Shown piece by piece: positions 50,847 through 60,779 of a stretch of DNA of 64,000 bases. Positions within the stretch are counted from its first letter, which is position 1. Every line of letters starts with the position of its first letter. The position numbers and the translations under genes were made by a program. Origin of the DNA: Gemmatimonadales bacterium (GTDB lineage Bacteria > Gemmatimonadota > Glassbacteria > GWA2-58-10); NCBI GenBank assembly GCA_024278175.1, contig JAJRTS010000002.1, positions 1 to 64,000 on the forward strand, in the 5' to 3' direction. The notes beneath the pieces were generated by a model that worked only from the letters and a program-made list of their open reading frames with translations, did no database searches and was not told the origin of the DNA.

Positions 50847-51007
50847 GGATAAATGGCGGGAATGCTCCCTTAAATTCGAGGCATCTGGTGATTTTGTTCA
50901 GATATTTTTTGCGCAGGCCGTGGAGCTGTTTTTTGTGGCTCAGCCAGTCTAACTGTTTTTTGTTTCAGCGGCAATTAATTCAAAACAAAAATGGGAAACC
51001 CGGTTTT

Positions 51008-51047
51008 AATAAAAAGCCCGGTCCGGCAATTTACCGGACCGGGCTTT
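51008..51047 (-). terminator. Rho-independent terminator after the PorV-like gene
   Basis: AAAGCCCGGTCCGG and CCGGACCGGGCTTT form a perfect 14-bp stem with a 7-nt loop; on the minus strand TTTTTATT follows. It closes the receptor/T9SS-like/PorV operon. Confidence 0.92.
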
Positions 51048-51075
51048 GTGTCCACTTGGAGCTTCAGTACTGACT

Positions 51076-55647: not shown

Positions 55648-58600
55648 TTAGAAATTGAACTCGGCACCGAAACGAATCTGCCTGGCGATACCATACTGGC
55701 TCTTGTCCATCGTGGACTGCATCACACGATAGGCGATGTTGCCCTTGGCCTGTTCCTCGAGAGAGAGGACTCCGTCCTGGTTGAAGTCCGCATTGAACCA
55801 GACCTTGGTTTCTTTGGGCGCGTTGTCGTCCCAGACTATCGGAACGCCGCCGCCGGCTGCCCTGTAGTAACCCTCGTAGTTCAGGCCGGAGGGGTACGGA
55901 GTGGGCAGCTTTTTGTTGAACAGGTTGAATATCTCGCTGAAGAAGCTGAGACGATAGGCACGGCCCAGACGGAACTCCTTGGTGAAACGGAGGTCCATGC
56001 TGTAGTCCCAGCGTCCGCGGAAGTAGTTCAAACCGCCGATGGGACGTCCATTGCGCCTGGTCAGCCAGGAGACATTTTGAGCCGCGTTCATAAAATAAGT
56101 GGATCCGCCGGCGACAATCCTGTCGTAGGCGGGCTGGCCACTGCTCAACCGGAACAGTACGAATGCGCGCACGTTCTTCAGGATCGGGTTAAAGATCGTG
56201 CCGGCCTGGAAGTCCTCGGGGAAGAGGTAGTTCAGGGTAGCGGTCAACTTGTGAGTCACATCGCCGTTGATCGGCCGCAACTCATCGGGCGGGGAGAATA
56301 CCGCGCCGGTTGACGGATCCATGAAAATATCCCATCCGCTGGTAGAGCTGTAGTCACTACCGGTGGTACGGGAGAACTGCATGGTGTACATCAGGTTGTA
56401 AGAGAAGTTGTTGCTGAAACGTTTGCGCATGGTAAAGTCCATGCCCTTGATGTTACCGCTGTCCCTGTTGGTGTAGCCGTTGGTCCATGTACGAATACGG
56501 CGTTCTTCGCGCCACTGGTAGTAGTCGCGGAAGAACTCCTTGCGGGCCACGTTACCCATCACATCACGGTAATAACCCACGATGTCGAGGACCATGTCGT
56601 CGCTCAACAGGTAGCTCAGGCCGCCCTCAAACGCGTCCGTGCGGCTGTACTGCAGGCCGCCGGGGTTGCCGCCGTTGAAGATGTAGCTCATGCTGGGCAG
56701 CTGTTTGAACACGCCGTAGCTGAAGCGCAATTGGCTCTTGTCGGTGACAGGGAAGCCGACGTCGAAACGGGGCGACCACTCGCTGAGGGTTTTGGCGAAA
56801 TAATTCTCACCCCAGTCATCGCCATATTTGAAGCCCCAGTTGTCGACCGGGTCGAACCTGTCGTAGCGCAGGCCATAGTTGAACACGAAATCGCCGAGGT
56901 CGGTGCGGTTCTGGGCGTAGGCGCTCAGAATCGTGGGCTCGTAGTTGAACTCGTTGTTCACGTCACGGTTGCGGTTCATGTTGTGCAGCTCGTACTTCTG
57001 GTTCTCGAAGTCCGAGTACTGTACACCGATCTTGGCCCTGTTGTAGCGGTTGAGCTGGAAGTCGATGTCGGCCTTGTAGTTGTTCTGCCATTCGCGGCTG
57101 TAGAAGTAGCTCAGCCAGTAGAGGTCGTTGCCCCTGATGAGCCTGAACGGATACTCAACATCCCAGGTGCGTTCCCACGGTCCCTGGCCGTTGGGGTACC
57201 AGCGGCGGGCTTCGGGCGAATCTTCCAGCGGCAGCTTCATCCCGGGAAAAGTCTCGACCTCGAACGGGATGTCGTGCAGCGACCAGCCGCCAAAGGTAGT
57301 GTTTTCGCTGCGGACGTAATTGTCCCTCAGGCTCGAATTCGTGATGTCCTGAGTTTTCATTCTGGTGTAGCGGAATATCAATGAACCGCTCTTGTCCGCG
57401 CTGCGGTAGAAGTCCCAGTCGGCACCGAGCAGCAGGTTGGTGGTGCGGGTCCTTCTGGCATAGGACTGCGGGATGAAAACAGTCGTATCCGGAGCATCAT
57501 ACTCCCAGGCCCGCAGGGGCAGGGTGCTGATAGTAGCAATGCCGTCGGTGAAGTAGTCCCCGTTATTATTGACGGGATAGCTGTTCTGGACCCGGCTGTA
57601 GTTGATCGATCCCAGCAGTTTCAGACCCTGGATCGGGTAGTAAGTCACCTTGCTGGTGGCAAGGCTCCTGTCGCCCCAGTTGCCCGGAACGCGCACAGGG
57701 TTGCCGGGATTGAACAGCGCAGCGCTCTTGCCGGTCTTGCCGGCGTAGAACTCGCGGCCTGCCTTGAAGTCTTCCAGCGAGAACGCGGGGTTCTGGTTGC
57801 CGAACACCGGGTCGTTACGCACGGCGTAGTTCAGGCGGCTGATGAATTGCTGATTGACTCCCCGGAAGCCCTCGTCGCCGTGCGTTGGCGTCCGGTCGGC
57901 CTGGCCCTGAATTTCTCCGGAACCCTGGATGTAAAGGTTGGGAATACCCGGCACGGGGCCACCGACAGATGCGGTCATCTGGTTGTAGCCGTAGTCGGCG
58001 GTGCGGGGGTTGGTCTCGTCGGTGGTGTACCTGAGGTTACCGCGCCATTGCGCGCCGCCTTCCTTGGTTACGATATTGACCACACCGGACTGGGCGTTGC
58101 CGTACTCGGCCTGGAACCCGCCGGTGATGATGTCAACCTGTTCCACCGCGTTGGCGGAGAACTCAAGAGGAGAAGCATCTTCCGCCTTGGAGCCCAGTTC
58201 CTGCTCCCAGACCCAGCCGTTACCACTGCGGAACGGATCGGCGGTGTAGTTACGCACGGCCACGCCGTCGACAATCATCACTTCCTCGCCGAGGCGGCCG
58301 CCGCGGATACGCAGGCCACGGCTGAGAGCGCCGGGACCGCCGGTCTGCACACCGGCCTCGAGGAGCATCATGTCCTCGAGCTTGGTGGCGGGTATCTCGG
58401 CGATTTTCCCAGCGGTCAGTCTCTGCTTACTGACCGTGTTGTCCCTGGGCATCAGCACATCGGATTCACCTTGGACAGTGATACCCTCAAGCTGAACCAC
58501 GGTGGAACTCAGGTTGGCGTCAACCGTGGTGGTCTGCCCGGAGAGCAGCAACTGGCCACCGACAGTCGTCTTCTGATAGCCGGTGAACGTGAAGGTGATA

Positions 58601-58839
58601 TCGCGCCGTCCCGGCGGGACATTCAAAATAAAATAGTAACCATCCGAGTTGGTTACGTTGCCCAGCCTGGTGCCTTCAATCACTACCTGGGCACCCTGCA
58701 ATGGTTCGCCCGTGTCGGCATCCCGGACCACGCCCTCCACCTTCGAGGTGTTGAGCTGCGCCAGGGCCGGCAGAGCCCAAAGCATTGCCGAAAGCAGCAA
58801 TATGCCGGACCTTCCGAAAAGACGTTTGTTAATCGACAT
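55648..58839 (-). CDS. TonB-dependent receptor with carboxypeptidase-like regulatory domain
   Basis: The 1063-residue outer-membrane receptor has a signal peptide ending ALAQ, an N-terminal carboxypeptidase-regulatory-like beta-sandwich (about 33-110: VEGVVRDADTGEPLQGAQVV, SDGYYFILNVPPG), a plug (about 125-260: LRIRGGRLGEEVMIVDGVAV, NAQSGVVNIVTKEGG) and a 22-stranded barrel ending in Phe (GAEFNF). It takes up a large ligand with energy from TonB. No SusD gene is present; the exported protein downstream takes that place. GGAGG precedes the ATG. A 692-nt region with tandem hairpin units lies upstream. Confidence 0.95.
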   Translation of the reverse strand: MSINKRLFGRSGILLLSAMLWALPALAQLNTSKVEGVVRDADTGEPLQGAQVVIEGTRLGNVTNSDGYYFILNVPPGRRDITFTFTGYQKTTVGGQLLLSGQTTTVDANLSSTVVQLEGITVQGESDVLMPRDNTVSKQRLTAGKIAEIPATKLEDMMLLEAGVQTGGPGALSRGLRIRGGRLGEEVMIVDGVAVRNYTADPFRSGNGWVWEQELGSKAEDASPLEFSANAVEQVDIITGGFQAEYGNAQSGVVNIVTKEGGAQWRGNLRYTTDETNPRTADYGYNQMTASVGGPVPGIPNLYIQGSGEIQGQADRTPTHGDEGFRGVNQQFISRLNYAVRNDPVFGNQNPAFSLEDFKAGREFYAGKTGKSAALFNPGNPVRVPGNWGDRSLATSKVTYYPIQGLKLLGSINYSRVQNSYPVNNNGDYFTDGIATISTLPLRAWEYDAPDTTVFIPQSYARRTRTTNLLLGADWDFYRSADKSGSLIFRYTRMKTQDITNSSLRDNYVRSENTTFGGWSLHDIPFEVETFPGMKLPLEDSPEARRWYPNGQGPWERTWDVEYPFRLIRGNDLYWLSYFYSREWQNNYKADIDFQLNRYNRAKIGVQYSDFENQKYELHNMNRNRDVNNEFNYEPTILSAYAQNRTDLGDFVFNYGLRYDRFDPVDNWGFKYGDDWGENYFAKTLSEWSPRFDVGFPVTDKSQLRFSYGVFKQLPSMSYIFNGGNPGGLQYSRTDAFEGGLSYLLSDDMVLDIVGYYRDVMGNVARKEFFRDYYQWREERRIRTWTNGYTNRDSGNIKGMDFTMRKRFSNNFSYNLMYTMQFSRTTGSDYSSTSGWDIFMDPSTGAVFSPPDELRPINGDVTHKLTATLNYLFPEDFQAGTIFNPILKNVRAFVLFRLSSGQPAYDRIVAGGSTYFMNAAQNVSWLTRRNGRPIGGLNYFRGRWDYSMDLRFTKEFRLGRAYRLSFFSEIFNLFNKKLPTPYPSGLNYEGYYRAAGGGVPIVWDDNAPKETKVWFNADFNQDGVLSLEEQAKGNIAYRVMQSTMDKSQYGIARQIRFGAEFNF

Positions 58840-58937: not shown

Positions 58938-59120
58938 TTCGCCTTCCTTCGGTGGCTTTGCTACATTGACCCTCCTTTCTCAGTATTGAGATTTATCGGT
59001 AAGGCCGGAGTACGGGAGCGTTCCCCGGGAACTCCGGCGATGAATCAGGACGGCTTATTGTGATTAAGAGCGCGTTCATGAACAATATCGACCCACGAGT
59101 ACCGGAATTGTAGGCTGAAC

Positions 59121-59466
59121 GCAACAATCCCCAAGGGTTGCGTTTGTGGCTCATGCCGGAGGATTCTTGGCGGAATTGACGGCATGGGCCTTTTAAATTT
59201 CTTTGCAAGCTTTATTTTTTCCGCAGGAACTCAAGTCGCATTTATGTGATTGTGCGCCGTTTTGTAAATAAATGTTGACATTCGTTTCTCAAGCTATTAC
59301 ATTGACGCAGCAATCCCCAAGGGTTGCGTTTGTGGCCCATGCCGGAGGATTCTTGGCGGAATTGACGGCATGGGCCTTTTAAGCTTCTTTGCAAGCTTTA
59401 TTTTTCCAGGCGATTGCGTTTGTGGCTCATACCGGAGGATTCTTGGCGGAACTGACGGCATGGGCC
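59121..59466. repeat. Tandem hairpin units between the ROK gene and the TonB receptor operon
   Basis: Two nearly identical 100-bp units (59121-59220 and 59307-59406) and a third partial unit (59412-59466) are present. Each contains a hairpin with arms GGCCCATGCCG and CGGCATGGGCC (perfect in unit 2) around a conserved 21-nt loop with GAGGATTCTTGGCGG. Units 1 and 2 also share CAATCCCCAAGGGTTGCG and the tail CTTTGCAAGCTTTATTTTT. The 86 nt between units 1 and 2 are unique. The region would be transcribed as the 3' end of the ROK transcript or the leader of the receptor operon. I know no riboswitch of this form. Confidence 0.85.
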
Positions 59467-59531
59467 GGTTGTATTTGCGCTTCAGTGGGCTATGTTCTGG
59501 ATTCCTTCTCCTGCTCTGTTATTTTTTTCAC

Positions 59532-60779
59532 TCAGGCGCAAACACTTTCCTGTCTGGATGTTTTGCTCTTCGATTTCCTCGCCCTGGCCACTGGCTGCCT
59601 CCCGTCGCCGTATTGCCCAAGCATGTGCTGCAGGACGAGGGCGCGTGCACCGCTGAACGTAGGATTATGCAAGGAGCACGGTACAATCAGGTCCGGCAGG
59701 TGCTCCATCGGGTGCGGCGCCCTGCTGCGAAGCTGGTCCAGTAGCTCGGGATAAATCAGTTTCCAGGCTTTGACGAGGTGGCCGGCCAGAATGATCCGCT
59801 CCGGGTCGAGTCCGTTGTTGATACTGGCCAGGCCCGCTCCCAGCCATTTCGCGGTTTCCCGCAAGGCCTTGCGCGCAGCGGAATCTCCCTCGACAGCCAT
59901 ATCGATCAGTCTGATCGCCTGGCTGCCGAGATCGTCTTCCCTCGGGGCACCGGTAAGCTTGCAATAACAGCCGACAATACCATCGAACGAGGCCTTGTCC
60001 TCCCAGGTAGCGCCTTTGGAGGGGGCTTCGTAATCCCCGTCGATCTCTACCCCCCCCCCCCCCGAGTAGAAATAACCATCCATAAACCGGGCTCCGTTAT
60101 AGAGCTTCCCGTGAATTACCGTGCCGCTGCCCACGCCTTCGCAGACCAGAACATACACGAAATCGTTCAGGCCCTTGACCTCGTCGGCGAACCAAAGCTC
60201 GGCTATCGCACCTGCCTTGGCGTCATTTTCAACAAATATAGGACACTCGAAATGGCGCTCGACCGGTTTGCGGCAGGAAACGTTTTTCCAGCCCAGGGAG
60301 TTGTGCCAGAAGATCACGCCGGTCTCGGAATTAAGCACCGCGGGTACGATCACGCTTACGCCGGCAAGGGGCTGCGTGAATTCAGCGACCATTTCCGCGA
60401 GTCTGGTAGCGCAGAGATCGAAGAATTTGTCGGCGTCGTTGGGGAAAATTTCGATTTGTTGTTGGGAAAGGACTCCGCCTGAAAGGTCGCAGACCGACAG
60501 GGTGGCGTGGCGAAGGGTTACATCAATCGATCCGTAAATCCGGTAATCCGGGCTGACCTTCAGGTTGACCGGCTTGCGGCCCAGCGCGTTGGCATCGTCA
60601 CGGCTGGCCTCGTAAATTGCGCCTTCGCCGATCAGTTCGCTGGTAATCTTCGATACCGTACTCTGGTTAAGTCCGGTTATCCGCGAGAGTTTTACCCGCG
60701 AAATCGGACCATGGGTAATGATATTATTAAATACAGCCGAGCGGTTGAGTGCTCGGATTTTTTTATGAGCATGAGGCAT
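59532..60779 (-). CDS. ROK-family transcriptional regulator with a G14 tract
   Basis: The 415-residue protein has an N-terminal winged helix-turn-helix (about 5-75: ISRVKLSRITGLNQSTVSKI) and a ROK domain (about 85-395: FVENDAKAGAIAELWF, VCEGVGSGTVIHGKLYNGARF, LDPERIILAGHLVKAW). ROK repressors of the NagC/Mlc/XylR group bind a sugar and leave their operators. The usual zinc-binding His and Cys residues after the NGA motif are missing; in their place are SGGGG, encoded by 14 G in a row, then VEIDGDYEAPSKG. It is next to the receptor operon on the same strand and divergent from the Asp-box lipoprotein, both plausible targets. Confidence 0.88.
   Translation of the reverse strand: MPHAHKKIRALNRSAVFNNIITHGPISRVKLSRITGLNQSTVSKITSELIGEGAIYEASRDDANALGRKPVNLKVSPDYRIYGSIDVTLRHATLSVCDLSGGVLSQQQIEIFPNDADKFFDLCATRLAEMVAEFTQPLAGVSVIVPAVLNSETGVIFWHNSLGWKNVSCRKPVERHFECPIFVENDAKAGAIAELWFADEVKGLNDFVYVLVCEGVGSGTVIHGKLYNGARFMDGYFYSGGGGVEIDGDYEAPSKGATWEDKASFDGIVGCYCKLTGAPREDDLGSQAIRLIDMAVEGDSAARKALRETAKWLGAGLASINNGLDPERIILAGHLVKAWKLIYPELLDQLRSRAPHPMEHLPDLIVPCSLHNPTFSGARALVLQHMLGQYGDGRQPVARARKSKSKTSRQESVCA
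60050..60063 (-). repeat. G14 homopolymer in the ROK coding strand
   Basis: Fourteen uninterrupted C on the plus strand are G in the coding strand and give Ser-Gly-Gly-Gly-Gly-Val. At the present length the frame is open through both halves of the ROK domain. One base more or less would break the protein about residue 240. It could be a phase-variation tract or a length error of sequencing. Confidence 0.9.

What the first reader, a model, noticed from the sequence alone, without database searches (positions are those of the whole stretch)
59121..59466. Tandem structured units in the leader of the TonB receptor operon
Two 100-bp units and a third partial one share an 11-bp stem, a 21-nt conserved loop and a shared tail, with unique sequence between units. 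The one stem difference in unit 1 is a G-U pair if read on the plus strand and a mismatch if read on the minus strand, while the conserved loop suggests a binding site. They could be tandem cis-regulatory RNAs, multiple operator sites for the ROK protein, or an array of a mobile repeat. No riboswitch class I know fits.
Basis: partly seen in the sequence, partly recalled or inferred. Interest (0 to 1): 0.7.

Follow-up and report, generated by a model that had tools for sequence, protein, structure and literature searches.

The report
Small-RNA gene family beside surface-protein genes
The repeated hairpins are tandem copies of a previously uncatalogued small-RNA gene that faces away from surface and secreted protein genes in one little-studied bacterial group, and probably helps to control them.

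Summary
The repeats are real: two near-identical ~100-bp units and a truncated third, found nowhere else in the genome. They are not a riboswitch-like leader of the TonB operon, because they read on the opposite (+) strand. Each complete member is a ~75-80 nt two-hairpin RNA. The second hairpin (11-bp stem, loop around CUUGGCGGA) ends in a T run like an intrinsic terminator. A strong sigma-70-type promoter sits just upstream in 7 of 12 members, including unit 2. Covariance models find the RNA in 6 of 6 held genomes of the window's family (Candidatus Glassbacteria) and, credibly, in none of 389 other genomes of the phylum. Pairs covary, and G-U pairs occur mostly as read on the + strand. Rfam 15 has no match.

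In all 7 loci with the promoter, the RNA diverges from a surface or secreted protein gene whose leader has a strong Shine-Dalgarno followed by a 1-5 codon ORF. In five of them that site lies in a conserved hairpin. The set-up resembles Bacteroides DonS-like RNAs divergent to susC, without shown sequence relation. Function is inferred: probably local control of the divergent gene. Two base-pairing tests gave no support, and no Hfq was found.

The parts
59275..59303 (+). sigma-70-type promoter of unit 2 (TTGACA, 17 nt, TACATT)
   Evidence: 10 of 12 consensus bases, 5 nt before model position 1; shuffles p 0.002
59309..59387 (+). unit 2: best-formed sRNA copy; hairpin 1 59310-59327, hairpin 2/terminator 59334-59376, then T run
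   Evidence: (101.8 bits; it is also in the training set of R1)
59123..59201 (+). unit 1: near-identical duplicate (hairpin 1 59124-59141, hairpin 2 59148-59190), T run kept, no convincing promoter
   Evidence: 96% over 101 nt; 7 of 12, shuffles p 0.33
59408..59477 (+). unit 3: truncated copy (hairpin 2 59424-59466), no 5' arm of hairpin 1, no promoter, T run lost
58970..58979 (-). strong Shine-Dalgarno-like stretch in the leader of the divergent TonB gene
   Evidence: sequence
58961..58966 (-). start-stop mini-ORF (ATG TAG) in the TonB leader; the real start is at 58839
   Evidence: sequence; counterparts in relatives
55648..58839 (-). divergent gene: TonB-linked outer-membrane receptor, SusC/RagA-like N-terminal part
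   Evidence: Pfam; NCBIfam (TIGR04056 54 bits, below its 368-bit cut-off)
59532..60779 (-). ROK-family protein, NagC/Mlc-like, convergent with the sRNA

Best explanation
WHAT (about 0.85): the units are copies of a small non-coding RNA gene on the + strand, specific in the genomes searched to the Glassbacteria family. Transcription starts near hairpin 1, runs through hairpin 2 and stops at its T run, giving ~75-80 nt. HOW (inferred, about 0.35): the RNA is a local regulator of the divergently transcribed surface-protein gene, working like DonS-type RNAs of Bacteroides. Transcribing the sRNA, or the RNA itself, limits expression of the divergent gene. Its conserved CUUGGCGGA loop is the contact site, probably for a protein. 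In this window unit 2 is the likely working copy; unit 1 is a recent duplicate, unit 3 a remnant. Shown by sequence comparison: structure, strand, promoter, T run, distribution, divergent placement. Not shown: transcription, partner, direction of control.
For: R1 was built from 6 copies. It found unseen members in G002 (E 1.3e-10), G004 C132 (6.4e-10) and G001 C5 (7.0e-8) in 61 genomes. R2 hit 6 of 6 family genomes and 1 of 389 others (E 0.0075, chance level). Structure on 11 members: 94.3% of 211 cells paired; 6 of 21 pairs with double-sided changes; covariation 0.214 against 0.148 in shuffles (0 of 500 reach it) and at most 0.093 when slid. RNAalifold recovers the same two hairpins on a MAFFT alignment of 9 members. 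G-U on + 18 cells, A-C on + 8 cells. Promoter of 10-11 of 12 bases in 7 of 12 members. T run of 4 or more after the stem on + in 10 of 12, on - in 0 of 12. Divergent to a surface/secreted-type gene in 7 of 7 promoter-bearing loci.
Against: No transcript data. Pairing of sRNA with its own divergent leader is no better than with other loci's leaders. Exact 10-nt complements of the loop lie near no translation start (0 of 15 sites in two genomes). 5 of 12 members lack the promoter, and 2 of these 5 are at contig edges. The inner stem is broken in both G001 C4 copies and in G005. The covariation rests on few, related sequences, and alignment A4 was fitted to the structure.
Confidence: 0.6

Rival explanations
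1. Protein-titrating RNA: the loop and its GGA motifs sequester an RNA-binding protein such as CsrA, as CsrB/RsmZ do, with effects across the genome and no link to the neighbour.
For: Two CsrA genes in the own genome; no Hfq in 6 of 6 family genomes; the loop is among the most conserved parts; 32 GGA in 11 members against 20.7 in shuffles.
Against: Only 2 of 11 members exceed shuffles at p 0.05 or less; the A(N)GGA core is absent from 6 of 11; the apical hexaloop is UUGGCG, not GGA. Constant divergent placement is unexplained.
Confidence: 0.2
2. The DNA palindrome CAATCCC..GGGATTG (hairpin 1, and a second copy over the -35 region and spacer in five loci) is a transcription-factor operator for the divergent promoters; the RNA is secondary.
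For: Second copy in 5 of 5 type A loci. Within 1 mismatch the pattern matches four of those five loci; the other 7 of 11 hits look like coding or non-promoter sites (my reading of the flanks).
Against: Hairpin 1 pairs are kept through G-U on + (7 G-U against 1 A-C), which breaks DNA symmetry. The second copy is absent from the window. No candidate regulator common to the loci was identified (neighbours only partly annotated).
Confidence: 0.2
3. Minus-strand leader element (riboswitch or attenuator) of the TonB operon.
For: The units lie between ROK and TonB, both on -. Reverse-strand folds are also better than shuffles.
Against: Promoter and T run are on + only; G-U bias favours +; the gene in the minus direction differs between type B and type A loci while the RNA stays the same.
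Confidence: 0.07
4. Mobile or selfish repeat (REP/MITE-like).
For: Copies in several loci; tandem duplication; 3 of 9 loci lie near contig ends.
Against: Own genome holds 3 copies, all here; 1-3 per relative, not scattered.
Confidence: 0.05

Closest known systems
DonS-like PUL-associated antisense sRNAs of Bacteroides (78-128 nt; passages read in PMC7366714 and PMC10994844)
   Same: Similar length; divergently encoded to a SusC-like TonB receptor (window and G001 C4); sugar-uptake-like neighbourhood with a ROK protein.
   Different: A conserved two-hairpin family with tandem copies; most loci face T9SS-type secreted proteins rather than susC; overlap with the mRNA and repression not shown; no sequence relation tested.
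CsrB/RsmZ-type CsrA-titrating RNAs (recalled)
   Same: Stand-alone structured RNA; CsrA present; conserved purine-rich loop.
   Different: One hairpin loop per unit, no GGA in the apical hexaloop, A(N)GGA core missing in 6 of 11 members.
STAB-SD mRNA stabilisers, e.g. cry3Aa (recalled; only a search listing seen)
   Same: Strong GAAAGGAGG stretch in the leader, not serving the main gene.
   Different: Here it is followed by a start-stop ORF and, in five loci, held in a hairpin. Concerns the divergent mRNA, not the units.

Membership tests
Intrinsic-terminator sRNA gene | own promoter just upstream | tested here: met
   7 of 12 members incl. unit 2; units 1 and 3 not
Intrinsic-terminator sRNA gene | GC-rich terminal hairpin plus T run on the same strand | tested here: met
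   10 of 12 on +, 0 of 12 on -; the generic scan found none in the window, as it allows loops of 3-8 only
Intrinsic-terminator sRNA gene | RNA is made | not testable with these tools
   no RNA-seq
DonS-like PUL antisense RNA | 78-128 nt, divergent to a susC homolog | tested here: inconclusive
   ~75-80 nt predicted; SusC/RagA-like in the window (below cut-off) and its G001 C4 counterpart, but 5 of 7 promoter-bearing loci face other secreted genes
DonS-like PUL antisense RNA | overlaps the mRNA and represses it | not testable with these tools
   mRNA start unknown
Any Rfam 15 family | covariance match | tested here: not met
   none, even at E up to 1
CsrA-titrating RNA | repeated A(N)GGA in loops | tested here: not met
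   core absent in 6 of 11
Mobile repeat | dispersed copies | tested here: not met
ROK operator array | sites accompany the ROK gene | tested here: inconclusive
   ROK adjoins the units in 2 of 7 promoter-bearing loci; the other 5 face secreted-protein genes, but flanking ORFs there were only partly annotated

The most novel reading that the evidence does not exclude
A two-part riboregulatory module new to science: a stand-alone sRNA and a divergent mRNA leader that share a palindromic 5' hairpin around one promoter region. The leader hides the Shine-Dalgarno of a start-stop mini-ORF in a hairpin; the sRNA acts as a partner or decoy that sets whether surface proteins are made, in bacteria in which no Hfq was found.
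Probability: 0.25. Interest if true: 0.7.

Novelty: new variant of a known kind. Interest (0 to 1): 0.52.

Why it matters
It adds a structured RNA family with promoter, T run and covariation to an uncultured group for which the searches listed no sRNA report by title. It ties that RNA to surface-protein and TonB genes, and gives a second, distant case for divergent small RNAs beside SusC-like operons outside Bacteroides. The conserved start-stop ORF with a hairpin-held Shine-Dalgarno is unusual and testable.

Tried and rejected
Rfam at gathering and at E up to 1: nothing. Pattern of the loop over genome contigs: none. Base pairing of sRNA with its divergent leader: own pairs not better than crossed pairs. 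Loop complement as target site: 20 sites in two genomes; 5 are the units themselves and were dropped; of the other 15 none lies near a start, and BLAST between the two sets gave one pair of loci with short matches only. Two intergenic sites were read by eye; no reason to call either a target. Coding: the units hold a short frame in the window and G001 C4 that shifts in other loci (by eye); rejected. Weak model hits were dropped: G044, G046, G002 C247, which reads as a terminator after a cold-shock-like gene (my reading), G000 C91, G000 C88 and G002 C68, window 51004-51060 on - and a short minus-strand hit in L037. These chance-level hits show that R2 below about 33 bits also picks plain terminators. 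G003 C143 (34.4 bits) is kept because of its promoter and leader. Kissing between the loops of hairpins 1 and 2 was considered by eye; the G001 C4 copies break it.

Full report
OBSERVATION. The repeat is present as described. Units 1 and 2 are 96% identical over 101 nt. Unit 3 is a truncated copy. The whole genome (4.18 Mb, 113 contigs) holds these three and no other copy: the remaining DNA matches were 24 nt or shorter, and the covariance model gave one further hit at E 0.15, which reads as a terminator-like hairpin.

STRAND AND ANATOMY. On the + strand a complete unit has two hairpins. Hairpin 1 is GCAATCC-CCAA-GGGTTGC in unit 2. Hairpin 2 has an 11-bp stem, a 21-nt loop with CTTGGCGGA, and a T run directly after the stem. 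Unit 2 has TTGACA-17-TACATT just upstream, so that transcription would begin at hairpin 1. Across 12 members in 6 genomes, 7 have a 10-11 of 12 promoter at that place (shuffles p 0.002 or less); units 1 and 3, G001 C4b, G003 C425 and G005 C177 do not. A T run of 4 or more follows the stem on + in 10 of 12, and on - in 0 of 12. Both genes that flank the units lie on -, so the RNA points away from the TonB gene and towards the end of the ROK gene.

RELATIVES. DNA search of 61 genomes found strong relatives in G001 and G004 and a short one in G005. Model R1, from six copies, added members in G002, G004 C132 and G001 C5 at E 7e-8 or below, and weak ones in G003 C425 and G005. Model R2 added G003 C143. 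In all there are 12 members in 9 loci, in 6 of 6 held genomes of the family. In the phylum sample of 395 genomes, 1 of the 389 outside the family passed E 0.01 (0.0075), fewer than the ~4 that chance would give. I therefore take the family to be Glassbacteria.

RNA EVIDENCE. On 11 members 94.3% of 211 cells pair; 6 of 21 pairs show changes on both sides; the covariation score is 0.214 against a shuffled mean of 0.148 (0 of 500 shuffles as high) and at most 0.093 when partners are slid. Without the inner stem the score is 0.211, reached by 2 of 500 shuffles. The inner stem just under the UUGGCG loop has three pair types at its outermost pair (G-C 4, U-A 3, A-U 1) but that pair is broken in 3 of 11. 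Departures from Watson-Crick are 18 G-U and 8 A-C as read on +, and 4 others; four of the eight A-C cells are from the poorly preserved G005 copy.

NEIGHBOURHOOD. Two locus types occur. Type B (window, G001 C4): between a ROK protein and a SusC/RagA-like TonB receptor, tandem copies. Type A (G001 C5, G002 C161, G003 C143, G004 C132, G004 C155): single copy, divergent to a secreted protein. Three of the five divergent proteins are homologous to each other (G001 C5, G003 C143, G004 C155); three carry T9SS/FlgD-like tails (G001 C5, G004 C155, G002); G004 C132 faces a lipoprotein-like gene with no family hit, and the G003 gene was compared only in its first 327 residues. Downstream on the sRNA's own strand, ORF lists show a convergent gene in the window, G001 C4, G003 C143, G004 C155, G005 and probably G001 C5; G002 and G003 C425 have a same-direction ORF some 380 and 600 nt away; G004 C132 reaches the contig end. 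So it is not a leader of a gene downstream.

THE DIVERGENT LEADER. In 5 of 5 type A loci the minus-strand leader contains the exact 16-mer AAAGGAGGTTGGCATG, which occurs nowhere else in the six genomes; three one-mismatch hits exist. On the minus strand it pairs with an upstream GTCAACCT arm in all five. Both arms are almost invariant, so covariation cannot be tested (0 of 20 pairs doubly changed, covariation term unfavourable). Minus-strand folds are stronger than plus-strand folds in 5 of 5, one of them by only 0.5 kcal/mol. The AUG is followed by a stop after 1-5 codons in 5 of 5 type A leaders, and also in both type B leaders, where the conserved hairpin sequence is absent. A random frame would stop within five codons about 21% of the time. 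The -35 region and spacer of the sRNA promoter carry a second copy of the hairpin 1 palindrome in type A; the window lacks it.

MECHANISM. The divergent placement, promoter overlap in type A, and lack of a gene directly downstream make local control of the surface gene the best guess, DonS-like in set-up. DonS is described as one of a family of 78-128 nt RNAs divergently encoded to, and lowering, susC homologs (passage in PMC7366714); 32 such RNAs are annotated in B. thetaiotaomicron, with both negative and positive correlations (passage in PMC10994844). I tested pairing with the divergent leader and loop complements near starts; neither gave support, so a protein partner or transcriptional interference is as likely as base pairing. 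CsrA is present, Hfq was not found in 6 of 6; the GGA pattern is weak.

VERDICT. Paper searches for the group and its RNAs listed nothing on it by title; most subscription papers are not in that library. The original DonS paper was not read.

Noticed in passing
58961-58979 (-) and leaders in L050, L051, L053, L054, L074: Start-stop mini-ORFs of 1-5 codons behind a strong Shine-Dalgarno in all seven divergent leaders; in five the site is in a conserved hairpin.
   Followed up: partly
59381-59405 (+): Second small AAGCTT..AAGCTT hairpin with a T run after unit 2, perhaps a backup terminator; weaker in unit 1.
   Followed up: no
about 59000-59034 (-): GC-rich inverted repeat with a CCCGGGG core in the TonB leader of the window, before the mini-ORF.
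   Followed up: no
L040/L075, L055, L053: Three of nine sRNA loci lie within about 200 bases of a contig end, perhaps an assembly effect of repeats.
   Followed up: no
G000 C16 and C63 (L060, L061): Two CsrA genes in the own genome, while no Hfq was found in any of six family genomes.
   Followed up: partly
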